From: a virus
Direction: 5' to 3' (one strand)
Virus record (IMG/VR): IMGVR_UViG_3300012936_000006
Span: 1 to 64,000 of that record
DNA: 64,000 bases
Below are positions 2,793 through 62,033 of this stretch, in pieces. The translations under genes and the position numbers were made by a program. The notes below the pieces were generated by a model. That model was not told the origin of the DNA and did not search any database. It saw only the letters and a program-made list of their open reading frames with translations. How positions within the stretch are numbered: the first letter of the stretch is position 1; every line of letters starts with the position of its first letter.

Positions 2793-3627
2793 GACAGAAG
2801 AAAAATTTACGAGCTTAACAATAAATCCTTGTGGTCTACAGACAATGGATGAAGCTATTTATAAATTCGTCAACGAAGATCTTAATATTTTTTGTACAAC
2901 TAATAAGGGATGGAAAAAAGTTTCTTGTCTTTGGTCTACAGCCGAGCGAGCAAGACAATCAAAGGGCGCAAGAGAAGCAAGAGACTCATCGGGTCAGTTG
3001 ATTTTACCGATCATGACAATTGAAAGAATTTCTGTTGTGAAAGATCCTGCTCGAAAAGGACCGTATTTTGCTAATGTTCCACCCACAGACAAAAGAGGTG
3101 GTTCTATTGTGATTGCAAAAAGAATCAATCAAGACAAAACAAAAAATTTCCAAAATGCACACTCTCTTAGAAAAAGAGGGCAAGTTAATTTTAAATTAGA
3201 AAAAAAGAATGACAAAGTTGTTTACCAGTATACAACGATTCCTCAGCCTACCTATGTTAACATTACTTACAAGGTTTCGATACGCACAGAATATCAGCAG
3301 CAGATGAATGAAATAATTCAACCTTTTATGGGTGTTGGAAAAAATATTAATTACCATTCTGTCTCTCACGAAGGTCACAAATTTGAGCTTTTTATTGGCT
3401 CTGACTTCACCCAGAGCAATAACTTGTCCGACATGGGTGAAGAAGAAAGAAAATTTCAAACCGATGTTGAGATAAAACTTATGGGCATGCTGATTGGCGA
3501 TGGACCTAATCAAGAGACACCAAAAGTCGTTATCACAGAAAACGCTGTAGAGGTTAAAATTCCTAGAGAAAGAGTAATGACCGACGAAAAACCCGGAGAA
3601 TGGGATAAATCTAAATTTAGGGGATAA
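2782..3627 (+). CDS. 15: Tail sheath terminator gp15-like
   Basis: A 281-residue protein matching T4 gp15 (272 residues), the ring that caps the contracted or extended sheath at its head end. The segment PTYVNITYKVSIRTEY, followed by QQQMNEIIQPF, corresponds to the T4 region with the pattern IxMIYELSIFTRYEDD and then a QILPYF helix. The later FELFIGSDFTQSNNLSDMG, then a run of charged residues and EIKLMGML, matches the T4 C-terminal domain. It lies directly upstream of the sheath gene, as in T4. Confidence 0.75.
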   Translation: MANKTEEKFTSLTINPCGLQTMDEAIYKFVNEDLNIFCTTNKGWKKVSCLWSTAERARQSKGAREARDSSGQLILPIMTIERISVVKDPARKGPYFANVPPTDKRGGSIVIAKRINQDKTKNFQNAHSLRKRGQVNFKLEKKNDKVVYQYTTIPQPTYVNITYKVSIRTEYQQQMNEIIQPFMGVGKNINYHSVSHEGHKFELFIGSDFTQSNNLSDMGEEERKFQTDVEIKLMGMLIGDGPNQETPKVVITENAVEVKIPRERVMTDEKPGEWDKSKFRG

Positions 3628-3652
3628 TTTAGTTCCTTTGGGGTTTTATCAT

Positions 3653-3664
3653 ACTATTTATTAG
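3653..3664 (+). promoter_or_regulatory. Putative late promoter (ACTATTTATTAG)
   Basis: A copy of the ACTATTTAT core in the 111-base gap between the gp15-like gene and the sheath gene, 86 bases before the sheath start. Position 10 is T rather than A, as in the copy at 55494. Confidence 0.55.
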
Positions 3665-3738
3665 AGAAATGGGTTTCAGGGAATTGTTCTGTTTAGCTCA
3701 TTGATTCATTAATCGAGAAATTAAGGAGAGATTTAAAA

Positions 3739-6700
3739 ATGTCAGTAAAGAAATTTAGATTTGTTTCACCCGGTGTTTTTATCAATGAGATTGATAACTC
3801 CCAGCTTCCCGCAAGAGCGGCAGGCATTGGACCAGTAGTTATTGGTCGATCTGAAAGAGGACCGTCGATGAGACCAGTAACTATAACTTCATTCTCAGAG
3901 TTCGTGGAAATGTTTGGTAACCCAATTCCCGGTGGCGAAGGTGGAGATATTTGGAGAGATGGTAACAGAACGGCACCCACCTATGGTGCGTATGCTGCTC
4001 AGGCTTACCTTCGAAGCAGTTCGCCGCTTACCTTTATCAGACTCTTAGGACACGAGCACGAAGACGCAACCGCAGCCGGTGCTGCTGGTTGGGCGATGGC
4101 AGACGGCGCATATGGTCTGTTTGTCGGATCGATGGTTAACGCAGCCGATGATTCTGAGGGAGGTGTAGCAGAAGTTCCAGCCGTTCCCGCCACAGCTTCT
4201 ATTTTGAGTGACGATATTTTACTTACAGCAGACGTTGCTGGCACAGCAGTAAACGGAAGAACCGTTACAGCTAGTGTTGTAGAAGAAGACCTTGGAGCCG
4301 GTAACCCTGCGACAGCCACTGTTACTATCGATGGCGATAGCAATATTACAATTGTCGTAAGAAACAATACAGATGCTGCGTCCGCTCCACCTTCCCCTGC
4401 TGCTCTTACAAAGACAGAGTTGGTGGACGCTATCAATGCGGCTCCCGGCATGTTTGCCGAGGCTTCATTAGCTGGCGCAGCCGGTGAACTTGCGCCTGCC
4501 GCACCTGCCGTTGTTCCTTTTGGTGGCGGTGCAGACGTTGTACCAGCAGTCGATGCAGTTGCAGACGGACCAGATGAGAATTTTGATATGCACCTTGCAG
4601 CAGTTGTTTACTCTGTTGATGGTGGTCTTGGTCTTTCTGGCAAGAATCTTGCAGGTGCCGATGTAAGTCAAAGCCTTGGCGAGTTTGTAAAGTGTCAGGG
4701 TACCGATGGTGAAGTTAAGATTTCTGTTGACAATAGCGACGGCGACCTTGTTAACTATAGTGTCAACTTTAACACAGGCTCCAAGAAATATATCAGAAAA
4801 GTCCTTAATACGAATCCAACACTCACAAACGAGAGTCACACTCGTCCAGAAGGCGTCGAGATGCACTTTTTGGGTGAGACATTTGATTCGTTTATTGCTG
4901 CCCAAGGTGACGATCTTCCGGGTGCTGACGACGGTGTAGCTATGCTAGTGAAACTTAACGGTGCTAGCGGCAAGCTTGATAAGGGTGATCACGCTCAAGG
5001 TGCTCAAGGACCAAAGTCAGGGTGGATTATCAGCCAACATAAGGGTTCTTTTGGAGATCACGAAGTTAATGCAGCAACAGGTCACTACAGGTCTGGTGTT
5101 ACAAAGTTGTTTAGAATTGAAGGTCTAGATGATGGTGCATGGGCTAGTCAAAACCTGAAGGTTGAGATTTCAAACATTAAAGCTTCTGACGATGACTTTA
5201 ATGCCTACGGTTCTTTTACCGTTACTCTTAGAAAAGCTGGCGACAGTGATCAAGCTCCACAGTATGTTGAGAGATACACTTCTGTAAACTTAAACCCAGC
5301 ATCAACAGATTATATTGCAAGAAGAATTGGTGATATGCGATCTGAGTGGAGTTATTCAGAGGGTCGATACAGAATGCTGGGTCAGTATCCAAGCCTTTCA
5401 CGGTTCATTCGTGTTGTTATGAATGAAGATGTGGACGCTGGTGTTGCAGATCCTGACTTGGTGCCGTTTGGTTTCATGGGACCACCAGCCCCTAGAACAG
5501 TTCAGATTAGTGTCGTAAAGGGTGGAGGTATTTCAGCTTCTGCAATCGCAGGTGCTGGTGATGGTACCCTTGGACAACATGCAATTGATAGTGCTGCTGC
5601 TGATCTTGTACATCCCGGTACAAACAGCTTCACTGCAAACCTTATTTTCCCATCTCAGGCATGCCGACAGGACTCGGAGCAGGGTAGATTATCATCGGGC
5701 GACTTGGCATCTTTTGGTGCATCAGCGAACGATGAGGGTGCAATTAGAGCAGATAAGTCTTTTGGCGAGCTTCTACATCCATACGGTGCTGGAATTTCCA
5801 ACCATGACGGAGAGAGCTTGCAGGATGGCACGATGTTGACGAGATCAGCATTAAGGTGTGCAAGCACTTTTGATGTTACTTCAAACCTTGTTCAACTTGA
5901 TGCCGGTGTGACTCAGGCTGTTATCAACGGTGCTGCTGGTGTCATTGAGCATGACTCTGCTGGTGCAGTTGCCGTAGTTCCTTGCTTTACGCTTGATGAC
6001 TTGGTTATGAAGCCTGTAGCGTCGGGTGCCGGTGTAACAAAGCCAAGCAGACAGCACGTACAATGGAGACCGGGCGCACGCCGTGCAGGTGCTTCGATTT
6101 CAGTTCTCGGTGACACATTCACATTGGCAGACGGTGAGACAGACTGGACCAGCACAGACCCGAAGGATCTTAGAGATGCTGAGGCTTCTGCCGAGGCTTC
6201 AGGTGACTACAAGGATGTTCTTCAGCACGGGTTCGACTCTTTCTGCTTACCACTTGTCGGTGGTTGTGATGGTGTTGATATTACGCAAAAAGAACCATTC
6301 TCAGAAGCTGAATTGGCTGATGGGTCACCAGAAACAAGCTATGCTTATAACTCGGTAAAGCGTGCAATCGACACAATTCGAGACCCAGAGGTCGTCGAGT
6401 GTAACATTGCTGCCGTTCCGGGTGTTTGTAATGAGAGTTTGACAAATCACTTGCTGACAGTTTGTGAAGCAAGAGCAGACGCACTAGCGGTTATCGACAT
6501 TAAAGGCGACTATCAGCCTAGTACCGATAATACATCGCCAGAAAGATTGCGCCTACCTAACGTCCGTGATGCTGTTAGAAGCATGAAGGACAGAAGACTT
6601 AATTCTTCTTACGGTTGTGCTTACTTCCCATGGGTTCAGATTAGAGATCAAATCAGTGATGCTGTTCTTTGGGCTCCACCATCGGTTGTAGCACTAGGTA

Positions 6701-38492: not shown

Positions 38493-39113
38493 ATGAAAAA
38501 AAATGAAAAGGGAACTATCCTTAACGAGACAACTATCCGAAGATTTATGAAGCTGGCAAATATTGCGCCTCTTGCAGAAAATTACTTGGGGCAGTTTACT
38601 GAAGAAGACGAAGAGCCAGAAATGGAGGCGGGAGTCGAGTCCGAGATGGGTGGTGAACCCGATGCAGCCATGGGAGACATGGGAGACATGGGAGACATGG
38701 ACGCTGCACCCGCCGAAGGTGGAGCATCAGGCGTCTCACAAGAGGCAGTTGAAGAAATCGTACAAGCTATCGCCTCAGCAGTAGAAGAGGTTACCGGCAC
38801 ATCTGTTAGTGCTGAGCCAGCAGCCGATGCCGAAGCACCGGTAGATATGGGTGGCGAACCTGAAATGGACATGGGCGGTGATGAGCCTGATCCCGCTACC
38901 AGATATGAAGCTAAGCAATCTGATGACGAAGAAGAAGTCGAAGAGGGTAAAATGGCTTACAAGCGTGAAAAAGACGAAGAAGTCGAAGAGGGCAAGAAAG
39001 CTTACAAGCGTGAAGAAGACGAAGAAGACGACGAAGATAAGATGAAGAGCGAGCAGCTTATTAATCGTATCGCTAAAAAGGTTGTCGAACGACTTCAAAG
39101 AGAACTGAAGTAA
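38493..39113 (+). CDS. Acidic repeat-containing virion-type protein
   Basis: A 206-residue strongly acidic protein with a late promoter and AGGAG site. The N-terminus ILNETTIRRFMKLANIAPLA is a pattern I recall from several marine myovirus virion proteins. The middle is Met/Gly/Asp/Glu-rich, with GDM repeated. Two 15-residue repeats (EVEEGKMAYKREKDE and EVEEGKKAYKREEDE) follow, then a basic C-terminal helix RIAKKVVERLQREL. The composition suits a scaffold-like or internal head protein, but no function is proven. Confidence 0.5.
   Translation: MKKNEKGTILNETTIRRFMKLANIAPLAENYLGQFTEEDEEPEMEAGVESEMGGEPDAAMGDMGDMGDMDAAPAEGGASGVSQEAVEEIVQAIASAVEEVTGTSVSAEPAADAEAPVDMGGEPEMDMGGDEPDPATRYEAKQSDDEEEVEEGKMAYKREKDEEVEEGKKAYKREEDEEDDEDKMKSEQLINRIAKKVVERLQRELK
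38934..39023 (+). repeat. Two tandem 45-base repeats within the acidic gene
   Basis: Two adjacent 45-base units (38934-38978 and 38979-39023) begin GAAGTCGAAGAGGG and encode the repeated 15-residue segment EVEEGKxAYKREx. A shorter nine-base repeat (GGAGACATG, three copies) lies upstream near 38670-38700. Confidence 0.8.
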
Positions 39114-44896: not shown

Positions 44897-46471
44897 GTGA
44901 GCAAGGTTTATAATAGTCACTCATCACTGAATGAGAAAATCCTAACAGGTGTTAACACACTAGCCGACAACGTAGCGGCAACCCTTGGACCCAAGGGCAG
45001 AAACGTAATTTTAAAAACTAAAGACGGCAATCCGGTCATTACCAAGGACGGTGTGACAGTTGCAAAGTTTGTAGAGCTATCTGATCCTTTTGAAAATCTT
45101 GGAGCGCAGGTAATTAAGCAGGCTTCTCAGGTCACTAATACCAATGCTGGCGACGGCACTACCACTGCGACCGTATTGGCAAGGGAGATCGTTACACAGG
45201 CACAAAAATATATTGCTGCTGGCTCATCCCCGGTAGAGATTAAGAGAGGTATGGATGAGGCAACAGAGGTTGTCATCGATACACTAGCTGAAATGGCAAC
45301 ACCCATTAGGAGCGAGGCAGAGGTGGCTAATGTGGCTACCATTTCAGCTAATGGCGACGAGAAGATTGGAAAGTTAATTGCAATGGCTATCGATCAGGCA
45401 GGAAAAGATGGAGGGATCTCCATCGAGTCTGGTAAGTCCATGCACACTACTCTAGATTTGGTAGAGGGTTTTCGATTTGACTCTGGATACATTTCATCCT
45501 CCTTTGTGACAGACCAGCGACTAGCAAAGATGAGATACAGCGATCCTTATATCTTGGTTGCTGACACAAATATTTCTGCCGTAGAGCAGTTGCTGCCCAC
45601 ACTAGAGCAGGTAGCCAGAGAGGGCAAACCACTGGTTATCGTAGCTGAGAACGTGGAGGGACAGGCACTAGCGGCACTAATCATGAACACTGTCCGTGGA
45701 AACATGAAGGTTGCAGCGGTCAAGGCTCCGATGTATGGAGAAGAGCGAAGAAATATTCTCCGTGACTTGGCACTCAGCACAGGCGCAACTTTCGTATCAA
45801 GAGAGACCGGCTTAGCACTTGAAGATGTGAAGCTAGAACACTTGGGTATTGCAAAAACTATTGAAAGCACACGAGGCTCCACAGTTGTTATTGATGGTGC
45901 TGGCACTGCGAGCGAGGTTGATGAGAAGATTGAACTTCTAAAGGCAGAAGTCCAGACAATTAAAGATCTTCATGAGGCAGAGAAGATTCAAGAAAGAATT
46001 ACGAGGCTCGCAAGTGGTGTCGCCATCATTCGAGTAGGCGGTACAACTGAGGTAGAGATGATCGAAACAAAGCACAGAATTGAAGATGCCTTATCCGCAG
46101 TTAAGTCTGCACAGGAGCAAGGCGTTGTAGCTGGTGGAGGTGTCGCACTACTGAGGGCATCTGTCGCACTTGCAGACTGCCAGTGTTCAAATCCTGATAG
46201 GCAAGCTGGAATTGAAATTATTAAACAGGCTCTTTGTGGTCCGATCAAACAGATGTGTTTGAACTCAGGAGAATCACCAGATCTTGTTATCGCTAGCGTC
46301 TGCGAGGCTGATACTGATGTGGGTTTTAATTTTGCAACAGGTCAGTTAGAGAATCTAATAAGCTCGGGAGTAATCGATCCAGCTAAGGTTACAAAAAATG
46401 CATTGCAAAATGCTGTTTCTGCTGCTGGAACTCTGTTGACGACAAATCATGCAATTGTGGAAGTGGATTAA
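44897..46471 (+). CDS. groEL: GroEL-type chaperonin
   Basis: A 524-residue group I chaperonin. The ATP site is intact: TLGPKGRNVILKT, KDGVTVAKFVEL and GDGTTTATVLAREI. The conserved GTTEVEMIETKHRIEDAL and GVVAGGGVALLRA are present. The bacterial Gly-Met tail is missing. The GTG start at 44897 follows TGGAGG. Together with the GroES-like gene at 29379 the phage encodes a whole folding machine, probably for its own capsid or tail proteins. Phage GroELs are uncommon; most T4 relatives supply only the cochaperonin. Confidence 0.95.
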   Translation: MSKVYNSHSSLNEKILTGVNTLADNVAATLGPKGRNVILKTKDGNPVITKDGVTVAKFVELSDPFENLGAQVIKQASQVTNTNAGDGTTTATVLAREIVTQAQKYIAAGSSPVEIKRGMDEATEVVIDTLAEMATPIRSEAEVANVATISANGDEKIGKLIAMAIDQAGKDGGISIESGKSMHTTLDLVEGFRFDSGYISSSFVTDQRLAKMRYSDPYILVADTNISAVEQLLPTLEQVAREGKPLVIVAENVEGQALAALIMNTVRGNMKVAAVKAPMYGEERRNILRDLALSTGATFVSRETGLALEDVKLEHLGIAKTIESTRGSTVVIDGAGTASEVDEKIELLKAEVQTIKDLHEAEKIQERITRLASGVAIIRVGGTTEVEMIETKHRIEDALSAVKSAQEQGVVAGGGVALLRASVALADCQCSNPDRQAGIEIIKQALCGPIKQMCLNSGESPDLVIASVCEADTDVGFNFATGQLENLISSGVIDPAKVTKNALQNAVSAAGTLLTTNHAIVEVD

Positions 46472-51781: not shown

Positions 51782-52219
51782 ATGAGTAACTTACAACTTT
51801 ATAGACCATCATTGAGTTCGTCGCTTTTAGGGCGTTCTATTTTTGATGAGATTTTCAACGGGGAATTGTTTGACTTTCCAGCAGTTGCGAGAAAGACAAC
51901 GCAAGGTTATCCCGTGGCAGACATTTTCAACACAGAGGCAGGAACAGTCTTAGAATTTGCTTTGGCTGGTTTCTCAAGGGATGAACTTTCCATCGACGTT
52001 CAGCCTGACAAGTCCAGCCTTACTGTGCGAGCAGAAACTTCTAGTGAGGATAATTCAGAAAGCCGACGTATTGCACGCCGTAGTTTTCAGAAGACCTATG
52101 TCAATTATGATAACAATCTTGATCTCAGTAGTGTGAGTGCCGAGTTTGTTAATGGGCTTCTTACGATTACAATCCCACGGAAAGAAGAACTCTGTCCGGT
52201 ATCGGTTGAGATTAAATAA
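51782..52219 (+). CDS. Hsp20 small heat-shock protein
   Basis: A 145-residue alpha-crystallin-domain chaperone. The N-terminus has the typical SIFDEIFNGELFDFP. The crystallin domain begins with PVADIFNTEAGTVLEFALAG, and ends with the family motif in VSAEFVNGLLTITIPRKEE (A-x-x-x-n-G-L-L-x-I-x-x-P). It holds unfolded proteins for later refolding and is also found in many cyanophages. AGGAG precedes the ATG. It is flanked by its own promoter and a strong terminator, a single-gene unit. Confidence 0.9.
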   Translation: MSNLQLYRPSLSSSLLGRSIFDEIFNGELFDFPAVARKTTQGYPVADIFNTEAGTVLEFALAGFSRDELSIDVQPDKSSLTVRAETSSEDNSESRRIARRSFQKTYVNYDNNLDLSSVSAEFVNGLLTITIPRKEELCPVSVEIK

Positions 52220-53921: not shown

Positions 53922-54584
53922 ATGAAAGAAGAACTAGAAACGTGGAGAAAGTTTTTGAAAGAAAACGAGGGCGCAACGGGAATGCAAAAATATAAGTTGT
54001 TCTGTGATATGGACGGCGTGCTAGTAGACTTCGAAAAGGGAGTCCTTGGCTATATGAACCAACGCATGGAGGCTTTAGCCGGTGGTGGCGAGCCTGTGAG
54101 CAGAGAAGAATTGAAAGACGCTGCTTTGGCTGTAGAAGCCATGGGCGGTTGGTTCGAGGTCAAGCCAGAGCACATCAAGCGACCCAGCGAAGGCGGTGTT
54201 GCTGAGGTTCGAGACCTGATGTACACGATGGTCGAAAACAACTATGAGGTGTGGGCAAACTTGCCTTGGATTCCGGGTGGCAAAGAGCTTTGGAATCACA
54301 TCAAGCAATACAACCCTGAGATCTTGACGGCTCCGATGGGACCAGAGAGTGAGCGGGGGAAAGAAACGTGGTGTGCTCGTGAGTTAGGTTCGGATATTCC
54401 TGTTAACATCACGGACAATAAGACTCCGTGGGGTCAGGGAGATGGCAAGCGACAAGGTTTGTTAATCGACGACCGTGAGAAGTACCGTGCTCAGTTTAAA
54501 AAGGGCGGCGGTGAAGTAGTGCCTCATACGCCGGGTGATGCCGGTCCTTCGATTGAGCGATTAAAAACGCTCGGCTTTCAATAG
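53922..54584 (+). CDS. Tagged HAD-family nucleotidase-like phosphatase
   Basis: A 220-residue protein. Residues 1-14 (MKEELETWRKFLKE) match the recurrent tag described in the findings, with a likely cut after Glu14. The HAD core follows: LFCDMDGVLVDFEKG, with nucleophile Asp29 and acid Asp31. GLLIDDREKY near residue 185 supplies the last acidic motif. The D-x-D-G-V-L-V-D-F pattern is that of 5'(3')-deoxyribonucleotidases and related phage phosphatases. If packaged and injected, it could act on host nucleotides at once. It has a host-type promoter, unlike the other tagged genes. Confidence 0.75.
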   Translation: MKEELETWRKFLKENEGATGMQKYKLFCDMDGVLVDFEKGVLGYMNQRMEALAGGGEPVSREELKDAALAVEAMGGWFEVKPEHIKRPSEGGVAEVRDLMYTMVENNYEVWANLPWIPGGKELWNHIKQYNPEILTAPMGPESERGKETWCARELGSDIPVNITDNKTPWGQGDGKRQGLLIDDREKYRAQFKKGGGEVVPHTPGDAGPSIERLKTLGFQ

Positions 54585-54616
54585 TCGCCTCTACTTATTA
54601 TAAGGAGGGTTGAATA

Positions 54617-54685
54617 ATGAGTGAATCAAACAAGTGTAAGTGTTGTCCGTGTTGCAAGTGCGATTGCGAAAATTGCTGCGAATAA
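54617..54685 (+). CDS. 22-residue cysteine-rich microprotein
   Basis: A 22-codon gene with a strong AAGGAGGG site (54602-54609) eight bases before its ATG. Nine of its 22 residues are Cys, in the pattern CKCCPCCKCDCENCC, with no other codons between them but Lys, Pro, Asp, Glu and Asn. The pattern of CxC and CC pairs is that of metallothioneins, which bind zinc, copper or cadmium through thiolate clusters. It is too small for usual gene callers. It may scavenge metal or act as a redox buffer. Real expression is likely from the ribosome site but not proven. Confidence 0.55.
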   Translation: MSESNKCKCCPCCKCDCENCCE

Positions 54686-54747
54686 ATTACTAAAAAGTTT
54701 CGTTTTCGCTCATTATGCCCTAATTATATTATAAAGAGGGTTGATTG

Positions 54748-55161
54748 GTGAAATTAGAAAATAATTTTAGTTTGTCGGAATTTAGATGTAGAGATGGTTC
54801 AGATGTTCCAGAAGAACTGATGGACAACGTGCGTCTTTTGGCTGAAAACCTACAGGTCTTGAGAGACTATATTGGAAGACCCGTTAAAATAATTTCCGGG
54901 TATAGATCGCCAGATTATAATAAAAAGATCGGCGGTGCAAAGCGCAGTCAGCACATGCTTGCAAAAGCGGCTGATATTAAGATTGAAGGCATGGAGCCTT
55001 GGATGGTTCATAAGATAATCGAGCATCTTATCTATGAAGGGCATATGATGAAAGGAGGTCTCGGGATATACGAGACATTTGTACATTATGATGTGCGAGG
55101 TAGAAACGCCAGATGGAAAGGCAAAGGTGTGAAGGATGATAGACCAGCGACAAAATATTAG
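54748..55161 (+). CDS. Peptidase M15-like (D-Ala-D-Ala carboxypeptidase type)
   Basis: A 137-residue peptidase of the M15 family. The zinc-site residues are visible in SGYRSPDYNKKIGG, SQHMLAKAADIKI (His and Asp) and TFVHYDVRG (last His). The family cuts peptide cross-links or D-Ala-D-Ala ends in peptidoglycan, and phages use it as an endolysin or virion enzyme. The GTG at 54748 is preferred to the TTG at 54745 for spacing to AGAGGG. No signal peptide is present. It is the third peptidoglycan-active gene in the window. Confidence 0.8.
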   Translation: MKLENNFSLSEFRCRDGSDVPEELMDNVRLLAENLQVLRDYIGRPVKIISGYRSPDYNKKIGGAKRSQHMLAKAADIKIEGMEPWMVHKIIEHLIYEGHMMKGGLGIYETFVHYDVRGRNARWKGKGVKDDRPATKY

Positions 55162-55163
55162 TT

Positions 55164-55481
55164 ATGATAGACTTGACAGACTCAGCAGCAAATAAAATAA
55201 AAGAAGTATTAAAAGATACTGAAAATACCGGAGTTCGTGCCGCCATTCAAGGCGGCGGGTGCTCCGGTTTTACTTATAAACTAACAATGGAAAAAGAGCC
55301 AGATCCTGATGACAAGGTTATCGAGATTAAGGGTGTGAAGTTGTTCGTAGATAAGAAGAGCTACTTATTCCTCATCGGAACCACTATAGATTTCGTCACC
55401 GAGATGATGCAAATGGGTTTTAAATTTATTAATCCGAATGCTAAAAGAACTTGCGGTTGTGGCGAAAGTTTTGGGATTTAA
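55164..55481 (+). CDS. A-type iron-sulfur cluster carrier (IscA/ErpA-like)
   Basis: A 105-residue protein with the A-type carrier pattern: LTDSAANKIKEVL at the start, GVRAAIQGGGCSGFTYKL with the first ligand Cys, and NPNAKRTCGCGESFGI at the C-terminus with the CxCG pair. It carries iron-sulfur clusters to target proteins. Such genes are known as auxiliary genes in marine phages. Its message probably ends before the late promoter at 55494. It starts three bases after the M15 gene with a weak ribosome site. Confidence 0.88.
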   Translation: MIDLTDSAANKIKEVLKDTENTGVRAAIQGGGCSGFTYKLTMEKEPDPDDKVIEIKGVKLFVDKKSYLFLIGTTIDFVTEMMQMGFKFINPNAKRTCGCGESFGI

Positions 55482-55493
55482 ACGCTTAAACAG

Positions 55494-55505
55494 ACTATTT
55501 ATTAA
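55494..55505 (+). promoter_or_regulatory. Putative late promoter of the tagged gene cluster
   Basis: ACTATTTATTAA, the seventh copy of the late motif, lies 36 bases before the tagged gene at 55530. The shared motif suggests the tagged genes are made together with virion proteins. Confidence 0.55.
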
Positions 55506-55529
55506 AGATGCCGAAGAGAGGATATTTTT

Positions 55530-55775
55530 ATGCAGAATTTGTTTGAAAATTGGAGAAAGTTTCTCGAAGAAATTGAAGCAGAAGAACTGCAAGAAAAGTC
55601 TAAATCAAAGAATCAGCAAAAATTTATGGGCATGGTCAAGAAGTGTCAAGAAACTGGCGATTGTGCCTCAGATGAGGTAGAGAAAACAGCCGACAGTATG
55701 GAGAAATCTGATGTAGACGACTTTGCCAAAACAAAACACAAAGGATTACCAGATAAAGTAGAGGATAAAAAATGA
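55530..55775 (+). CDS. Small tagged internal-head protein candidate
   Basis: An 81-residue protein whose first 14 residues, MQNLFENWRKFLEE, are the recurrent tag. The rest is short, charged and probably disordered: Lys/Ser-rich, then FMGMVKKCQETGDCASDEV and an acidic end. The small size, low complexity and tag resemble the T4 internal proteins IPI-IPIII. GAGAGGA precedes the ATG. Its stop overlaps the next tagged gene (ATGA). Confidence 0.6.
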   Translation: MQNLFENWRKFLEEIEAEELQEKSKSKNQQKFMGMVKKCQETGDCASDEVEKTADSMEKSDVDDFAKTKHKGLPDKVEDKK

Positions 55776-57637
55776 AACTATTAATGGAAAACTGGCGAAA
55801 CTTTCTCGCAGAAGAAGAAAAGAATTGTGGTTGTGGTCAAGATCCTTGCATCACTTACGGAGTACAGAACGAAGCCAAAGAAGATGAAGGATATGAGCCC
55901 CACATGATGTACAATCCTAAAACTGGCGAAAAGAAAAAAGCCAAGACTAAAGAAGAGCATGAATCACTGGGTGCATCAGGTTGGCAGCACGTCAACCCTG
56001 ATGAGATCCGCAAAGCTTTAGAGGATGAGGGCGGTGCTGCTGACACCGATGCTATCGTAGACAGAACAGATGCAAGTGGCAAAGAAGTAAAAAAAGCTAT
56101 GAAAGACATGCCTGACGTTGCTCAACATGATAAAGGTGACTACATTCTTGGCGATAAAGATAAGATAAAAATTGAAGAAGATTGCTGGGATGGTTACGAG
56201 AGAGTTCCGGGCTCTAAAGAGGGAGAGCCGGGATCTTGTCGAAAGAAAACAAATGAAGGTGCTGGTCACGCCGAATCCATTCTTCAAGCACAAAACCAAG
56301 GCGTTGCTTTTATTCGTGGTCAAGACGATAAAGCAGCAGGTAAGGAAAAGGATCCTAACTATTCTGAAGAAAGTGGACGTAATCCTTTAGAAGTTCTTTT
56401 TTATAATGCTGGTTATGACAAAGGGATGGATGAAAATTTTTCGTCGAAGACTGAAGCCTCTTTTGGTGATAAAAGCGCAACAACATTTACGACCCAGCAG
56501 ATGAATGACGAAGAAGAAACTGCTGCCGAAATAGAAAGTGCTATTGTCTCGCTTGCAAAAGAAAAAGGTATGAGTGCTGAAGAGCTAAAAGCAGCGATTC
56601 TGGGAAATATAAAAAATAAGAAAGGCATTTCCGTTGAGCAAGCAGCAATTGATGAAGCAGAAATCTGCAAAGCAGGAAAAGATTGGGTCGATGGCAAGGA
56701 GATCGGAGGACAAGTTGTTAAACGAGGCGAAGACGGCAAGTTTAATAATTGGTCTGCTCGTGCAGCACAGATTGCTTCCAACTATTGCAAAAATCCTAAC
56801 TACGGTAGAGGGAAGAAGAAAAAGAAGAACGAATCGATGAGTGAGGGCGATCTTGGCGATTGGGAAAAAGAAAACTGGACACACTCAGACGGCACACCCT
56901 GCGGCGGTGGCGACAAGGACGGTTCACAGAGCCGATGCAAGCCAGCTTCCAAGTGGAAAGGCATGAGCAAGGGTGAGAAAGCAGCCGACAATGCAAAGAA
57001 AAAAGCTGGCACAGATGCAGGCAAGCAATATGTTTCAGCTACCAAGAAAGGAAAGGTTACTAAAGCTCACACAAAAGAAGCCCAAGTTGCCGATATTTTA
57101 GCAAGAGTGTTTGAGGGGTGTGGTGAACCTGCTCCTGTAAATTATGATCACGGTCCAGAGGCATCAATGCATAGAAGCTCCCTTCACACAATTAAGGGCG
57201 AAGTCGAACAGCTTCTATATATGATTGGTGAACAAGATGATTTACCTGAATGGCTAGAAGCAAAGATTACGAAAGCAAAAGCATATTTGTCTGCTGCAAA
57301 AGATTACTTGTCAGGTGAACAGGCTGAGATGGCAGGCGCACTTGAAGAGCAGCTTGCAGATGCGATTGTGGTAGAGTATCTTGAAGAAGATAATATGGAC
57401 GAAGGCGGCAGATGCACAAAGGCAACTGAGAAAACTACCTCTACTCGCAAGGGCAAGAAGTACATGAAGTGTATCAAGAATCCAGACGGTGAAGGTTATA
57501 TTAGAAAACACTGGGGTCAGAAAGGTGCTAGAGCAGCACCAAAGGGATCTAAAAGAAACAAGAGCTTTAACAAGCGACATAAGTGCTCAACCGCAAAAGC
57601 GGGTACAGCAAGAAAATTAGCATGTGATGATTGGTAG
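55772..57637 (+). CDS. Tagged mosaic Lys/Cys-rich protein
   Basis: A 621-residue protein starting with the tag MKLLMENWRNFLAEE. After it come several short Lys- and Cys-rich modules in series: MMYNPKTGEKKKAKTKEEH, CWDGYERVPGSKEG, GEDGKFNNWSARAAQIASNY, WEKENWTHSDGTPCGG, a helical SLHTIKGEVEQLLYMIGEQD part, and a basic C-terminal KSFNKRHKCSTAKAGTARKL. Modules of these types are scattered in marine phage virion proteins as I remember them. The overall charge suits DNA contact inside the head. No enzyme domain is visible. Confidence 0.6.
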   Translation: MKLLMENWRNFLAEEEKNCGCGQDPCITYGVQNEAKEDEGYEPHMMYNPKTGEKKKAKTKEEHESLGASGWQHVNPDEIRKALEDEGGAADTDAIVDRTDASGKEVKKAMKDMPDVAQHDKGDYILGDKDKIKIEEDCWDGYERVPGSKEGEPGSCRKKTNEGAGHAESILQAQNQGVAFIRGQDDKAAGKEKDPNYSEESGRNPLEVLFYNAGYDKGMDENFSSKTEASFGDKSATTFTTQQMNDEEETAAEIESAIVSLAKEKGMSAEELKAAILGNIKNKKGISVEQAAIDEAEICKAGKDWVDGKEIGGQVVKRGEDGKFNNWSARAAQIASNYCKNPNYGRGKKKKKNESMSEGDLGDWEKENWTHSDGTPCGGGDKDGSQSRCKPASKWKGMSKGEKAADNAKKKAGTDAGKQYVSATKKGKVTKAHTKEAQVADILARVFEGCGEPAPVNYDHGPEASMHRSSLHTIKGEVEQLLYMIGEQDDLPEWLEAKITKAKAYLSAAKDYLSGEQAEMAGALEEQLADAIVVEYLEEDNMDEGGRCTKATEKTTSTRKGKKYMKCIKNPDGEGYIRKHWGQKGARAAPKGSKRNKSFNKRHKCSTAKAGTARKLACDDW

Positions 57638-57649
57638 GAGGAGCCAAAA

Positions 57650-57811
57650 ATGAAAAGTTTATTAACATTATTAACAATTATTATGCTTGCGCTTGCAGGC
57701 TGCGGAGATGATTGCACATCTGCACCAGACACTGGTGTTGATGCGGGTGGCACTGATGCAGCTATCGATGCAGGCGGTGATGCAGGCGACGTTGGCGGCG
57801 ATAGTCAATGA
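57650..57811 (+). CDS. Small lipoprotein of deltaproteobacterial style
   Basis: A 53-residue lipoprotein. The signal peptide ends in the lipobox LALAGC, giving a lipid-anchored Cys at residue 18. The mature part is CGDDCTSAPDTGVDAGGTD followed by more Asp/Ala/Gly. That low-complexity D-T-G-V-D-A-G style is characteristic of lipoproteins from Myxococcota and related deltaproteobacteria (family knowledge). AGGAGGAG precedes the ATG. The stop overlaps the next start (ATGA). It may be an envelope protein for superinfection immunity. Confidence 0.72.
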   Translation: MKSLLTLLTIIMLALAGCGDDCTSAPDTGVDAGGTDAAIDAGGDAGDVGGDSQ

Positions 57812-58179
57812 TCAACTGGCTGAGATCACGCAGACCGTGGATGATTGAGAATTCAAAGATTCCAGTCTTTTTGTCTCACTTTGCGCCAATTAATATTTGG
57901 GCAATATCGTTTGGTCCGTTTGTTTGGTGTCGTGGCGTTATGTCGGAGACAACCAAGAGACACGAAATTATCCACTATCACCAGCAACTAGAACTAGCTT
58001 TCATAGGCCAATGGACCTTATACCTCATTTTTTACCTACGTGGTCTGATTAGAGGCGGTGCTGGTTCTGGCGAAGAAGCTTATAGGGCTAATGCATTCGA
58101 AGTGGAGGCATACACGCATGAGGCAGAAATTGATTACTTAGAGAAGAGACCACTTTATAATTGGAGAAATTACTTATGA
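57808..58179 (+). CDS. Membrane protein with HExxH motif
   Basis: A 123-residue protein with two probable membrane segments (VFLSHFAPINIWAISFGPFV and LAFIGQWTLYLIFYLRGLI). Between them is KRHEIIHYHQQLEL, an HExxH zinc motif. A similar small family, found in bacteria and phages, has this arrangement and no known function. A C-terminal acidic helix contains FEVEAYTHEAEIDY, which could give a third ligand. It is coupled by ATGA to the lipoprotein gene, so the two may form an envelope unit. Confidence 0.55.
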   Translation: MINWLRSRRPWMIENSKIPVFLSHFAPINIWAISFGPFVWCRGVMSETTKRHEIIHYHQQLELAFIGQWTLYLIFYLRGLIRGGAGSGEEAYRANAFEVEAYTHEAEIDYLEKRPLYNWRNYL

Positions 58180-58421
58180 GATTAAAATCTAGAGCACGAC
58201 AGATTATCATTGAAGAGATCTTGAGGGAGAATGACGAAAGGGCAGCATCGGGTGCCGAGTCATTAGGTAGTTCATTGGGTGGACGCCCAGATGTAGCTAT
58301 GGCTATCGAAGCAGTTCTTAAAGAAAAGGGTCTTCCAAAATCCGCAGCAGCATTGATGAAGGCGTATAAGTCTGCACAAGCTGAAATGGATATGGAATAT
58401 TCTTTACATTACCCGGAATAG
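58176..58421 (+). CDS. Hypothetical protein within the tagged cluster
   Basis: An 81-residue helical protein, not recognised, starting at an ATG that overlaps the previous stop (ATGA). Its N-terminus (LKSRARQIIIEEILREN) is a positively charged amphipathic helix but not the tag. A Gly/Ser-rich turn follows, then a helical LPKSAAALMKAYKSAQAEM. Confidence 0.5.
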   Translation: MRLKSRARQIIIEEILRENDERAASGAESLGSSLGGRPDVAMAIEAVLKEKGLPKSAAALMKAYKSAQAEMDMEYSLHYPE

Positions 58422-58429
58422 GTGATATA

Positions 58430-58624
58430 TTGTTTGAAGGTGCAAAAAAACATTTGGAAGAGAGAGGTGAGACATACTTTGAGCATATGCAAGCAGCGGC
58501 AAGTTTAGCTTTGATGTTAGCTGTTGTTAGTTTGAAGTGTGTTGTTCACTCGGTGTTTCCAAATTATTATAAAACTTGTGTATCAGATAAATTATCAGAT
58601 ATTCAAAAAATGGTAAAGAGGTAA
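58430..58624 (+). CDS. DUF6356-like membrane protein
   Basis: A 64-residue protein with a TTG start after AGGTGAT. Its pattern, GETYFEHMQAAASLALMLAV, then KCVVHSVFPNYYKTCVSDKL, matches the small DUF6356-type family (GESYxEHM, a membrane segment, ALVHxxxPFxFxxTxS). It spans the membrane once. Function is unknown. Such small membrane proteins occur in bacteria and their phages. Confidence 0.55.
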   Translation: MFEGAKKHLEERGETYFEHMQAAASLALMLAVVSLKCVVHSVFPNYYKTCVSDKLSDIQKMVKR

Positions 58625-58629
58625 TTTCG

Positions 58630-59445
58630 ATGAAACAATTAATGGAAAGCTGGCGAAACTTTATGAAAGAGCAGAGCCAGATCGAAGAAACTGGTGCCGG
58701 TGGTTATCAATACGAAGAGTATGTCATTAATGCACTGAAGACGGCAGGAGCCGTTGGTAATATTACCTCCGGTGCGGGGGCTTCAGCAGCAGCGGCTGAC
58801 GCTGACATTAGAGTAAATGGCAAGGTTTATAATATTGAAGTAAAGATGGACGGCAAAGCCCAGATGGGCGGCACATCTCTCAGGTACTTTCCGCAGGGTG
58901 TGCCATCTGATGACCCTTCAGCACCCGAGGGTAAACTACAGAAGTTTGTCATTGTCTCAAACTCTGTTGAGCCTGACACTGTTACAATGATGGAAGAGGC
59001 TCTGACACCCCTAGAGCAAGATTTAAATAACTTCTTAGAGGCGATTGGTGCAACTAAGATGCCTGCAACGGTCGAGAAAGATCTTTGGGCGGCAGCGGTA
59101 GCAGAGGGTTTGCTTAGACCACTCAACGTAAAACTAAAAAGAACAACCAAGTTTATTATTAACCACTACGCTAAAAAAGGTGTAGACTATATACAGATCG
59201 GCGGGGCAGGGCTATTTTATTTAGCGAACAATCCAGCAAACTTGCCGGTTCCTCAGCTTGACGGAGAGATCAATATTGAGCTTAGACCCGGAAGAAGTGG
59301 GAGTAAGAAAAGAAAAGACGGCACTGTGGTTGTCGGCGGCTTGATTCGTGTACAGGGTCGATTGCAGTTTAGGGGTCAGTCACCTTACACACTTGACGAT
59401 CCTCAAAGCATTGCAGAGATGCTAAAAGAGGCAAACTCGGCATGA
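58630..59445 (+). CDS. Tagged PD-(D/E)XK nuclease-like protein
   Basis: A 271-residue protein with the tag MKQLMESWRNFMKEQ at residues 1-15. It is followed by YQYEEYVINALKTAG, then ADADIRVNGKVYNIEVKMDG: Asp57/Asp59, Glu70 and Lys72 fit the D-(X)n-E-x-K active site of the PD-(D/E)XK superfamily, with an upstream helix carrying Glu29/Glu30. The C-terminal half, with KGVDYIQIGGAGLFYLANN, is common in phage nucleases of this fold. If packaged, it could cut host DNA or act on concatemers in the new cell. Its stop overlaps the next tagged gene (ATGA). Confidence 0.65.
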   Translation: MKQLMESWRNFMKEQSQIEETGAGGYQYEEYVINALKTAGAVGNITSGAGASAAAADADIRVNGKVYNIEVKMDGKAQMGGTSLRYFPQGVPSDDPSAPEGKLQKFVIVSNSVEPDTVTMMEEALTPLEQDLNNFLEAIGATKMPATVEKDLWAAAVAEGLLRPLNVKLKRTTKFIINHYAKKGVDYIQIGGAGLFYLANNPANLPVPQLDGEINIELRPGRSGSKKRKDGTVVVGGLIRVQGRLQFRGQSPYTLDDPQSIAEMLKEANSA

Positions 59446-59711
59446 AACAGTTAATGGAAAATTGGCGACGATATAAGCGCATGTCCGAGGTATCTTATGA
59501 TGGAAACATTGGGTTCGAAGAGACTGTAAGGTTTTATCAATCTGCACCCAAAGAAAAAATAGCTGAGTTTGAGGCTATGCTGGACAGTGGAGATGAAAAG
59601 AGTGCTATGGGTATTATCCTTGATTTTCTTGGCACTTCACTGCAAGGTGACCAATTCCCGCAGATGAAAGCTGTTGCTGAAGCCATAGAAGTGGAGAGGG
59701 ACCAAGAATGA
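59442..59711 (+). CDS. Small tagged protein
   Basis: An 89-residue protein starting MKQLMENWRRYKRMSE, a variant of the tag in which FL is replaced by a longer basic stretch ending in MSE. It has NIGFEETVRFYQSAPKEKIA and a second helix that looks like a small helical domain I recall from other phage proteins. ATGA overlaps link it to the genes on both sides. Confidence 0.55.
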   Translation: MKQLMENWRRYKRMSEVSYDGNIGFEETVRFYQSAPKEKIAEFEAMLDSGDEKSAMGIILDFLGTSLQGDQFPQMKAVAEAIEVERDQE

Positions 59712-60391
59712 AACAATTAATGGAAAATTGGCGCAAGTTTCTAAACGAGGGAATAGACTCCCGCATTCAGAAACAGATTGATATGGTGATTCAGCTTCCC
59801 GACGTAGGCATTACCATCTCTCGGGGTGGTTTCGGCAGGAGTATTAGATATGTTCTCATCGAAGACGCTGAAACTCAGCAATACTCCGAACTAACTTATA
59901 ATGATGCACTCGGTGACAAGAAAGATTATCCTCACGGAGAAGTTGATATTATGAAAACGTCTGAAGATTCCGAAGGACCATGTTTGGATGGCTGGACCGT
60001 CACGGCTGCTGAAGCTAGAAAGGGGTGGGGTCCACTTCTTTATGAGGTGGCGATTGAATATGCTTCACAGAATGGTGGAGGTCTCACGCCAGACAGGTTC
60101 TCAGTATCACGACACGCAATGGCTGTGTGGGACAAGTATGCCACCCGAGATGGTGTTGATGCTCAGCAGATGGACACCAATCATGACCCCAGCGCAATGG
60201 GCGCAAGGGTGAATACAACAGTTCCGCAGTTGACGCCCGATGACAAGTCAGATGACTGTGATCAGTCGAGAGCTATTTCTAAAGACGGAGAAAACTGGCA
60301 CAAGAACTCAACGACGAAAATGTATAAGAAAGACAATCCAGAAGTAATGCAGGCACTTAAATCTGCGGGGAGGCTAATTATAGCGGTATGA
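59708..60391 (+). CDS. Tagged acetyltransferase-like protein
   Basis: A 227-residue protein beginning MKQLMENWRKFLNEG, the most typical form of the tag. The middle segment, AARKGWG-type (EARKGWGPLLYEVAIEYAS) followed by LTPDRFSVSRHAMAVWDKYA, resembles the last part of GNAT acetyltransferases, where R/Q-G-x-G binds acetyl-CoA and a late V-S-x-x-A-x-x-x-W/Y follows. The rest of the GNAT fold is less clear. The C-terminus is polar. ATGA overlaps connect it to both neighbours. Confidence 0.5.
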   Translation: MKQLMENWRKFLNEGIDSRIQKQIDMVIQLPDVGITISRGGFGRSIRYVLIEDAETQQYSELTYNDALGDKKDYPHGEVDIMKTSEDSEGPCLDGWTVTAAEARKGWGPLLYEVAIEYASQNGGGLTPDRFSVSRHAMAVWDKYATRDGVDAQQMDTNHDPSAMGARVNTTVPQLTPDDKSDDCDQSRAISKDGENWHKNSTTKMYKKDNPEVMQALKSAGRLIIAV

Positions 60392-60951
60392 AAGAATTAA
60401 TGGAAAATTGGCGAGGCTACATTAATGAGCAAGAAAGAATTGCTTTAGAAGAGGGCGTCTTTCAAGATGCCATGACTTGGTTGAAGGACAAGGGACGGCA
60501 AGCTCAGGAGAAAGCAAAAAAGTTTCTTGAAAGTTTAAGAGAAGAGCTTGCTGAGACTAAAGTTGGTATTATGCTCTTGCAGAAGATTGCCGCAGGAAAA
60601 GAACTAAGTGATGACGAATCTCAATTCTTAAAAGATCAGGCAAAAGATATAGCTAGTGGCACTGCGCTGCTTGGGCTCTTTGCTCTGCCCGGTGGTGGTA
60701 TCGCATCGGCAGCGTTGCTAAAGATGGCTCGAAAGTTTGGGGTTGAGCTTATGCCAAGTTCTTTTCTTGACGAGCCAGAGCTAGCAGAACGTGACTGGCA
60801 AAAAGAATCTGAAAAGCTAAAAGATCATCCGAACAAGAAAGCTAGGATTTTAGACACAGGTGCCAATAAGGAAACTGGCGGCGGCACTGGGCATCGGAAG
60901 CTCGATAAACGCCGAGGTAAAAGCGCACCACCCGGAGCAGGCGGGGTATAA
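60388..60951 (+). CDS. Tagged LETM1-like protein
   Basis: A 187-residue protein with the tag MKELMENWRGYINEQ. A long charged helix follows, then DESQFLKDQAKDIASGTALL, LFALPGGGIASAALLKMA and LMPSSFL. This last part resembles the ribosome-binding-type domain of LETM1, seen in small phage proteins as the run F-A-L-P-G-G-x-x-x-x-x-L-L with L-P-S-x-F. The C-terminus is basic and Gly-rich. ATGA couples it to the gene upstream. If packaged, one guess is an action on host ribosomes or membranes. Confidence 0.5.
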   Translation: MKELMENWRGYINEQERIALEEGVFQDAMTWLKDKGRQAQEKAKKFLESLREELAETKVGIMLLQKIAAGKELSDDESQFLKDQAKDIASGTALLGLFALPGGGIASAALLKMARKFGVELMPSSFLDEPELAERDWQKESEKLKDHPNKKARILDTGANKETGGGTGHRKLDKRRGKSAPPGAGGV

Positions 60952-60968
60952 AATTATAAATAAACAGC

Positions 60969-60997
60969 TTAACAATCGAAAGAAACCTACTTATAAT
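60969..60997 (+). promoter_or_regulatory. Sigma-70-like promoter before 61016
   Basis: TTAACA (60969-60974) and TATAAT (60992-60997) are 17 bases apart. A T4-type late sequence, TATAAATA (60955-60962), lies just upstream on the same strand and is the only + strand copy I noticed. Confidence 0.65.
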
Positions 60998-61015
60998 ATA
61001 GGGGGGTCTGTATAA

Positions 61016-61234
61016 ATGGCGATTGACAAGCTTTACTTTCACGGCTCGTGTCTTGCATGCAGAGGAACTAGTAAAACTTGGTATAATCGTCCTTGTCCGT
61101 ATTGTTATCGAGGCACAGCTTATCACGAGGCATCGGACAAGCTAGTCCAGAAATATGTTCTTGAAGAAATGGATGAAAACGCCCAAAAAGAACTATTTAA
61201 TGAGATGAAAGAGAAATACGAAAAGGAAAGTTAA
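61016..61234 (+). CDS. Small DnaJ-type zinc-finger protein
   Basis: A 72-residue protein with CLAC and CPYC about 16 residues apart (CLACRGTSKTWYNRP, then CPYCYRGTAYHEAS), the Cys-x-x-Cys-x-Gly arrangement of half a DnaJ zinc finger. The rest is an acidic helix. A G-rich ribosome site precedes the ATG. It directly abuts the next gene. Confidence 0.55.
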   Translation: MAIDKLYFHGSCLACRGTSKTWYNRPCPYCYRGTAYHEASDKLVQKYVLEEMDENAQKELFNEMKEKYEKES

Positions 61235-61417
61235 ATGTGTTTAATTTGTGTTGAATATAACTTGAAGAGACTAACAATCAATGAAGCCTACAGAAACTTA
61301 CAAGAGATGAAAGAGATTCTCCCAGAAGAACACGTAGAAGAAATTGAAAAGATGTTAGAACACGACACTCTTCAGGAGATTCATGAGCTTGAAGGAGATG
61401 ATAATAATGAGCTTTAA
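61235..61417 (+). CDS. Small MCLIC-type protein
   Basis: A 60-residue protein beginning MCLICVEYNLKRLTINEAYR, then NLQEMKEIL and an acidic helix. Proteins opening with MCLIC are frequent short genes of phages and bacteria, with no known role. It overlaps the tagged ADP-ribosyltransferase-like gene by eleven bases. Confidence 0.55.
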   Translation: MCLICVEYNLKRLTINEAYRNLQEMKEILPEEHVEEIEKMLEHDTLQEIHELEGDDNNEL

Positions 61418-62033
61418 AGATTTGTGGAAAAACTACATTCGAACCGGTGAATCGCAAGCTAGCATTCAGCCTACATCTTGGAAAAGTTTTTTGATCGAAG
61501 AGTTAGAGACAGTTCACAGCCCAGAAGAACAGCAACAGCCAGCGGCACTACAGCCGTCAGAAATTCCAGCGGAACTGTTTCATGCAACTCGACCACCGTT
61601 GCTGTCTGCGATAGCCGAACAAGGCTTGCGTGATTATTCTGATTTTTCCCGGCATGGAGCTGGTCAGATAGGCGTCTCGTTTGCTACCGAATTGACACCG
61701 CTTGAGGATGGCAGCTTTGGTAATCTAGTGCTTGTATTTGACGGAAAAGAGCTAGCTGCATCAAACCAATATATTTTTAAAAATCATCAAGATCCCACCA
61801 TTGATACTAAAGAAGCAGAAGTTCGTGTTACCATGTCAGACTCAGCCGGTGATTCTGGCTCAGGTATTGATTCAAAGGTTGATGCGCTCGGAACATCTAT
61901 CCCTTTTCACTTTTGCAAGAAAATGATTTTTCTCTATCCCGTGCCAAAGTTCGAATTAAAGTGGTTAAAAGAAAACTACCCATCGGTAGAAATTCAGGTA
62001 TTAAAACAAGAAAAAGAAGAAAATAAAGAATAA
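61407..62033 (+). CDS. ADP-ribosyltransferase/KptA-like protein with tag-like N-terminus
   Basis: A 208-residue protein. The start at 61407 follows AAGGAG; upstream starts in frame lie in the previous gene. Its first part holds two tag-like pieces, FKDLWKNYI and SWKSFLIEE (residues 24-32). The catalytic part opens with LFHATRPPLLSAIAEQGL (His59), then GVSFATELTP (Ser91), and TKEAEVRV (Glu136/Glu138). H...S...E with an ExE pair is what ADP-ribosyltransferases and the related RNA 2'-phosphotransferases show. T4 packages an ADP-ribosyltransferase (Alt) to modify host RNA polymerase, so the comparison is direct. The exact family remains uncertain. Confidence 0.6.
   Translation: MSFKDLWKNYIRTGESQASIQPTSWKSFLIEELETVHSPEEQQQPAALQPSEIPAELFHATRPPLLSAIAEQGLRDYSDFSRHGAGQIGVSFATELTPLEDGSFGNLVLVFDGKELAASNQYIFKNHQDPTIDTKEAEVRVTMSDSAGDSGSGIDSKVDALGTSIPFHFCKKMIFLYPVPKFELKWLKENYPSVEIQVLKQEKEENKE

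What the first reader, a model, noticed from the sequence alone, without database searches (positions are those of the whole stretch)
53922..62033. A cluster of proteins sharing an N-terminal tag that looks like a capsid targeting sequence
Six genes at 55530, 55772, 58630, 59442, 59708 and 60388 begin M-(K/Q)-x-L-(M/F)-E-(N/S)-W-R, four of them continuing x-F-(L/M)-x-E and one x-Y-I-x-E. The HAD gene at 53922 has a variant and the gene at 61407 a weaker one. The DNA is nearly identical over the first 26 bases in several copies. T4 internal head proteins begin M-K-T-Y-Q-E-F-I-x-E and are cut after that Glu by the prohead protease (known). Aromatic-hydrophobic-x-Glu at the same distance from the start suggests the same job: load unrelated effectors into the head, cut the tag, inject them with the DNA. 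The bodies differ widely (HAD, nuclease-like, ADP-ribosyltransferase-like, acetyltransferase-like, LETM1-like), as for a cargo system. A late-promoter copy heads the group at 55494.
Basis: partly seen in the sequence, partly recalled or inferred. Interest (0 to 1): 0.9.

Follow-up and report, generated by a model that had tools for sequence, protein, structure and literature searches.

The report
Head-loading address tag on phage cargo
A family of uncultured, mostly marine T4-like phages puts the same 14-residue removable label on many otherwise unrelated proteins, almost certainly so that they are packed into the virus head, trimmed and injected into the host with the DNA, which would let a phage's injected cargo be read from its genome alone.

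Summary
Six window genes start M(K/Q)xL(M/F)E(N/S)WR. The HAD gene is a seventh. An eighth (ORF 61383) carries the core W-x-x-F-L-x-E at residues 33-39, not at 61407. IMG/VR holds 117 further stretches (99 distinct tagged proteins); with the window's eight, 107 proteins fall into 66 sequence-distinct body groups. In 84,980 cellular genomes the pattern occurs twice, both out-of-frame chance. Positions not constrained by the search are still conserved: F/Y/H11 99/99, L/I/V/M/F12 93/99, E14 86/99. T4's capsid targeting sequence has the same spacing (Y4-x-x-F7-I8-x-E10). All 12 tag-bearing records of at least 150 kb encode the T4-type (S77) prohead protease. A late-promoter-like motif (CTATTTAT) heads the tag operon. 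One cargo body occurs behind different leaders in seven phage groups, joined at a hydrophobic-x-Glu: tag A in some, the T4-type MKTFKEFLEE in a cyanophage. Its S-CREM2 relative was found in purified virions by published mass spectrometry. Verdict: a new variant of the T4 capsid-targeting tag.

The parts
55495..55502 (+). late-promoter-like motif CTATTTAT heading the tag operon
   Evidence: same motif before the gene at 942 that follows gp23, before the sheath gene and three following genes (921, 3654, 7288, 8014, 9212) and the gene at 38493; lies on the coding strand 75 against 3 times in five phages
53922..53963 (+). variant tag MKEELETWRKFLKE on the HAD / 5'-3' deoxyribonucleotidase-like gene 53922-54584
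   Evidence: W8, F11, L12, E14 kept; homologs in G004 and G024 carry full tags; body PHROG 2643 E 2e-16
55530..55571 (+). tag MQNLFENWRKFLEE on gene 55530-55775 (DUF3008-like body)
55772..55813 (+). tag MKLLMENWRNFLAE on gene 55772-57637 (621 aa, unknown)
58630..58671 (+). tag MKQLMESWRNFMKE on gene 58630-59445
   Evidence: body homologous to untagged PSSM2_192 of cyanophage P-SSM2
59442..59483 (+). tag MKQLMENWRRYKRM on gene 59442-59711; targeting residues kept, E14 missing (next hydrophobic-x-E is MSE16)
59708..59749 (+). tag MKQLMENWRKFLNE on gene 59708-60391 (body family of at least 10 tagged members)
   Evidence: alignment A1: M1, L4, E6, W8, R9, E14 invariant among members 21-52% identical to it
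60388..60429 (+). tag MKELMENWRGYINE on gene 60388-60951 (weak LETM1-related body)
   Evidence: NF040639 E 4.5e-7 but far below cut-off
61479..61499 (+). tag core W33KSFLIE39 inside ORF 61383-62033
   Evidence: aligns with MKLIIENWRKFLTE of the tagged homolog in G007, 49% identity
46..834 (+). C-terminal part of T4-type major capsid protein gp23; the record begins inside it, so the protease region is missing
   Evidence: PF07068 E 1e-62

Best explanation
The 14-residue leader MK(L)LMENWRx(F/Y)(L)xE is a capsid targeting sequence of a T4-like (gp23/S77 protease) phage group. Late in infection the tagged proteins are made from late promoters; the N-terminal part (W8 and F/Y11, corresponding to Y4 and F7 of the T4 CTS) docks them to the prohead core; the gp21-type protease then cuts after E14 of the L-x-E motif, freeing the bodies inside the head; they leave with the DNA and act in the new host. 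Shown here: the conserved unit, its spacing, its restriction to phage contigs, protease co-occurrence, late-promoter-like motif, diverse bodies, leader swapping at the Glu. Inferred: docking, cleavage, injection and effector action.
For: Tag logo ends at E14. Register equals T4 ipIII MKTYQEFIAE translated from NC_000866, where residues 4 and 7 target and 8 and 10 process, and gp21 cuts after L/I-x-E (PMC9026906). S77 protease in 12/12 tag-bearing records of at least 150 kb; gp23 of the same phages has LL(R/K)E near residue 60, close to the T4 cut, in 8/8. Tagged genes sit between protease and scaffold genes in G018 and flank the protease gene in G004. Late-promoter-like motif heads the tag clusters in G000 and G007. 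66 body groups among 107 proteins, including NUDIX, GNAT, kinase, zeta-toxin-like and 2H phosphodiesterase domains. Same bodies occur untagged elsewhere: HAD in G007, PSSM2_192. Eleven homologs with different leaders share the junction: ten end in hydrophobic-x-E directly before (S/K)(S/G)(L/F/I)(S/N/A)R, one (G024) has one extra residue after the Glu; one leader is MKTFKEFLEE. The S-CREM2 homolog (MKDFDSFLEE..., T4 register) was detected in CsCl-purified virions with 19 peptides, and the kinase, cytidylyltransferase and Cas9-like proteins detected there also carry such cores (PMC10665884).
Against: No virion of a tag-A phage has been analysed and none was found among cultured phages. The window's own record is a fragment that starts inside gp23, so its protease is not seen. 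S77 phages are common among large marine phages and no random baseline was measured. 59442 has no E at 14. Many bodies have no recognised domain, and some tagged proteins beside the scaffold gene may be core components rather than effectors. The S-CREM2 authors themselves note that co-purification cannot be excluded.
Confidence: 0.88

Rival explanations
1. The tag is a true head-core docking signal, but the tagged proteins are mainly scaffold or core components that help build the head and are degraded or left behind, not injected effectors.
For: Two tagged proteins lie between protease and scaffold genes in G018 and one family recurs near head genes.
Against: Most tagged genes lie in separate clusters far from head genes, with bodies that differ from phage to phage, many with enzyme domains; core proteins should be conserved.
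Confidence: 0.09
2. The tag is a localisation or degradation signal for something else inside the infected cell, such as the membrane or a replication compartment.
For: Such a signal would also sit at the N-terminus of unrelated proteins (one search shows the N-terminal position).
Against: Does not explain the end at L-x-E, the T4 register, the late-promoter-like motif, replacement by a T4-type CTS on the same body, or virion detection of the S-CREM2 relatives.
Confidence: 0.02
3. The conserved unit is a DNA or mRNA element, such as a recombination site or translation enhancer, and the peptide is incidental.
For: Window copies share codons beyond codon usage; such identity could help cassette exchange.
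Against: Across phages N7 uses AAT/AAC 53/46, R9 six codons, E14 GAA/GAG 55/31, while the amino acids are fixed; selection is on the peptide.
Confidence: 0.01

Closest known systems
T4 internal proteins IPI/IPII/IPIII and Alt with the 10-residue capsid targeting sequence, cut by gp21 (Mullaney and Black 1996; reviewed in PMC9026906)
   Same: N-terminal leader on unrelated bodies, aromatic-x-x-aromatic-hydrophobic-x-Glu, T4-type protease, diverse and variable cargo
   Different: Four residues longer at the front (MKLLMENW against MKTY), Trp in the first aromatic place, nearly invariant sequence over many phages, 7-9 tagged genes per phage, mostly in clusters
Virion-associated enzymes of cyanophage S-CREM2 (PMC10665884)
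   Same: Cargo enzymes found by mass spectrometry in virions; one is homologous to the cargo at 70589 of this record; leaders MK(D/R/N)(F/L)xxFL(E/T)E end in the same core
   Different: T4-length leader; the authors did not describe a targeting sequence (term absent from the text)
phiKZ/SPN3US inner-body and ejection proteins with propeptides cut by a diverged gp21
   Same: Propeptides removed C-terminal to Glu by a prohead protease; large ejected cargo
   Different: According to PMC9026906 their proteases are diverged from T4 gp21; the phages here carry S77 proteases of the T4 type

Membership tests
T4-type capsid-targeted, gp21-processed internal proteins | Short N-terminal leader shared by unrelated bodies | tested here: met
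   107 proteins, 66 body groups; 42 N-terminal against 1 internal hit
T4-type capsid-targeted, gp21-processed internal proteins | Targeting residues at T4 spacing (4 and 7) | tested here: met
   W8 (fixed by the search pattern) and F/Y/H 11 in 99/99, same spacing
T4-type capsid-targeted, gp21-processed internal proteins | Hydrophobic-x-Glu cleavage site closing the leader | tested here: met
   LIVMF12 93/99, E14 86/99; any such site in residues 10-18 92/99 against 11% background
T4-type capsid-targeted, gp21-processed internal proteins | Gp21-type (S77) protease in the same phage | tested here: met
   12/12 tag-bearing records of at least 150 kb; not observable in the truncated window record
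T4-type capsid-targeted, gp21-processed internal proteins | Late expression with head proteins | tested here: met
   sequence evidence only: late-promoter-like motif at the cluster head in G000 and G007
T4-type capsid-targeted, gp21-processed internal proteins | Cleavage after the Glu | tested here: inconclusive
   indirect: leaders are exchanged at this bond in ten of eleven homologs, one residue later in the eleventh; no peptide data
T4-type capsid-targeted, gp21-processed internal proteins | Presence inside the virion and injection | not testable with these tools
   only a relative in S-CREM2 was seen in virions (published)
phiKZ-type inner-body proteins | phiKZ-type diverged protease rather than T4-type S77 | tested here: not met
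   proteases here score far above the S77 cut-off

The most novel reading that the evidence does not exclude
Head loading by a genome-readable N-terminal address is general across T4-like phages: several leader classes (MKLLMENWRKFLNE, MKITKxQLRxIIKEE, FDLKKFLVENKLT, MKxFxxFLxE) are interchangeable labels with one core, h-x-x-(F/I)-(L/I)-x-E, and mark hundreds of unknown proteins, up to 14 in a single 240-290 kb phage, as injected cargo.
Probability: 0.55. Interest if true: 0.9.

Novelty: new variant of a known kind. Interest (0 to 1): 0.78.

Why it matters
T4 internal proteins inhibit host restriction enzymes (PMC12373910), so phage cargo is a rich source of anti-defence and takeover proteins, but it is usually found only by virion proteomics of cultured phages. 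A label that can be read from sequence turns uncultured T4-like phages into a searchable catalogue of candidate injected proteins and offers another removable tag for loading proteins into phage heads. No open-access paper held here mentions the tag sequence.

Tried and rejected
T4 late promoter TATAAATA as the late signal: rejected, not above expectation in most of the phages; CTATTTAT replaces it. tblastn of the bare tag against cultured phages: only meaningless hits, and none for the MKITK class. AlphaFold of 58630 from one sequence: pLDDT 34, unusable. AlphaFold of 59708 with ten homologs: pTM 0.73, tag region under 50, but no PDB fold match, so 'acetyltransferase-like' is not supported. 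Profiles of 59708 and 61383, and 53922, 58630 and 61383 singly, found no convincing relative in the PDB. The search for related loci with 58630 gave nothing. One pattern search was mis-spelled by one base and returned zero; repeated correctly. Virion proteomics of Flavobacterium phage immuto was looked for and not found.

Full report
1. What is there. The window is part of a 76,766-base virus record (G000) that starts inside a T4-type major capsid gene (gp23 C-terminus at 46-780) and continues with tail genes. The HAD gene at 53922 has a variant with all core residues. The gene called at 61407 is better read from 61383: aligned with a cleanly tagged homolog in phage G007 (49% identity) its core W33-x-x-F36-L37-x-E39 lies at 61479-61499. 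Two further tagged genes lie outside the window at 70332 and 70589; the latter carries a second tag-like stretch at about residue 114, where a cargo that is separate elsewhere (L091) has been fused behind another tagged piece.

2. Is it more than chance. The DNA pattern occurs six times forward, never reverse, and never in its backwards control in G000. In IMG/VR, 117 stretches carry ATG-AAR-NNN-YTN-ATG-GAR-AAY-TGG-MG, with 128 matches. In 84,980 bacterial and archaeal genomes (257 Gb) there are two, both dead ten-residue frames. Although the pattern stops at codon 9, residue 11 is F/Y/H in 99/99 distinct proteins, residue 12 is L/I/V/M/F in 93, residue 14 is E in 86 (background 8%); information then falls off. 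In five phages (1,106 ORFs) the core [WFY]xx[FYH][LIVMF]xE with E at residue 14 occurs 26 times against 0.16 expected. A tag profile scores 42 N-terminal and 1 internal hit in these phages, with 3 hits in reversed proteins. Synonymous codons vary across phages while the peptide is fixed, so selection is on the peptide; within the window the copies are nearly identical in DNA, as if recently copied.

3. Bodies. 107 tagged proteins form 66 groups with no detectable similarity between them, 52 of them single. Recognised domains: NUDIX, GNAT, protein kinase, zeta-toxin/AAA_33, 2H phosphodiesterase, DUF192. In the window: 53922 is a 5'-3' deoxyribonucleotidase-like HAD (PHROG 2643); 55530 is DUF3008-like, below cut-off; 60388 has a weak LETM1-related hit far below cut-off; 58630 belongs to a family with cyanophage P-SSM2 gene 192. 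'Acetyltransferase-like' for 59708 was not supported, and the ADP-ribosyltransferase and nuclease labels are unconfirmed.

4. The tag is an add-on. The HAD is tagged in G000, G004 and G024 but untagged in G007. The 58630 body is untagged in P-SSM2, where it lies among replication and purine genes. The 55530 body has a different leader in G007.

5. Why capsid targeting. (a) Register: T4 ipII and ipIII start MKTYQEFIAE; residues 4 and 7 direct targeting, 8 and 10 processing, and gp21 cuts after L/I-x-E (PMC9026906). Tag A has W8-x-x-(F/Y)11-(L)12-x-E14: the same spacing behind four extra residues. T4 ipI keeps F4 and F7 but not the E at 10, as 59442 keeps W8 and Y11 but not E14. (b) Protease: all 12 tag-bearing records of at least 150 kb have an S77 protease; records without one are shorter than 130 kb and may be fragments. 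Their gp23 carries LL(R/K)E near residue 60 in 8/8, and gp21 itself carries LLTE-like sites. (c) Place: in G018 two tagged genes lie between protease and scaffold genes; in G004 core-bearing genes flank the protease gene. (d) Timing: CTATTTAT lies on the coding strand 75:3 in five phages and before tail or head genes; it heads the tag cluster here (55495) and in G007 (19530). This is sequence evidence only.

6. Leader swapping. The body in the second half of gene 70589 was aligned in eleven homologs from seven groups: tag-A phages (G000, G024, L091), Microcystis phage Mel-JY01, Lak phages, Alishewanella phage Slicko01, Campylobacter phages CP220 and CC_R7, Synechococcus phage S-CREM2 and single-cell virus AG-345-L05. 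Leaders differ in sequence and length, but ten end in hydrophobic-x-E directly before (S/K)(S/G)(L/F/I)(S/N/A)R; in G024 one residue (M) intervenes. Examples: MKLLMENWRKFINE|SGFSR (L091), MQFKQYILGE|SSLSR (Mel-JY01), MSYKMKTFKEFLEE|SSLSR (AG-345-L05). MKTFKEFLEE is a T4-type targeting sequence, so tag A and the T4-type leader stand in for each other at the predicted cut.

7. Virion evidence from a relative. S-CREM2 gp6, the homolog of this body, begins MKDFDSFLEE and was found in CsCl-purified virions with 19 unique peptides, together with an APH-like kinase (MKRFDAFLTE), a cytidylyltransferase (MKNFSSFLTE) and a Cas9-like protein with F-A-S-F-M-A-E at residues 19-25 (PMC10665884). Of 178 S-CREM2 proteins checked here, 5 have the core within residues 1-14 and 4 of them are in the virion list (Fisher P 0.01; two wider settings 0.002-0.003). 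The authors name no targeting sequence and caution that co-purification is possible.

8. Verdict. Working like a T4 capsid targeting sequence: very likely. Membership: five defining features met, one indirect, one not testable here. Injection and effector roles follow from the T4 precedent and are inferred. The tag sequence is not mentioned in the open-access papers held, which does not exclude subscription papers.

Noticed in passing
L231-L309; L170:2813-3157 and 3594-3950: A second N-terminal label, MKITKxQLRxIIKEE, also with E at 14, fills a capped viral scan, occurs at over 100 places in 21 of 22 searched records with up to 14 per 240-290 kb phage, and 19 of 20 such records have the S77 protease.
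   Followed up: partly
L187:13806, 27631, 28632 (Flavobacterium phage immuto): A third leader class, M..(F)(D/N)L(K/R)xFL(V/T)ENKLT, on several genes of a cultured phage, plus MKKSQLRQIIKEA-like leaders.
   Followed up: partly
70589-71557 of the record (L125:10589-11557): One ORF with two tag-like stretches, as if two cargo genes had fused; the second part is homologous to a protein annotated as SAM hydrolase in S-CREM2.
   Followed up: yes
38493-39113: Late-promoter-headed gene starting with LNETTIRRFMKLANI, with relatives in G007, G024 and G004; the motif resembles the C-terminal RM(Q/R)(K/R)LAGI of the scaffold protein gp22.
   Followed up: partly
44897-46471 and 51782-52219: ORFs that read like phage-encoded GroEL and Hsp20 chaperones (from sequence only).
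   Followed up: no
57650-57811: Small lipoprotein-like ORF (signal ending LAGC) inside the tag cluster, without tag.
   Followed up: no
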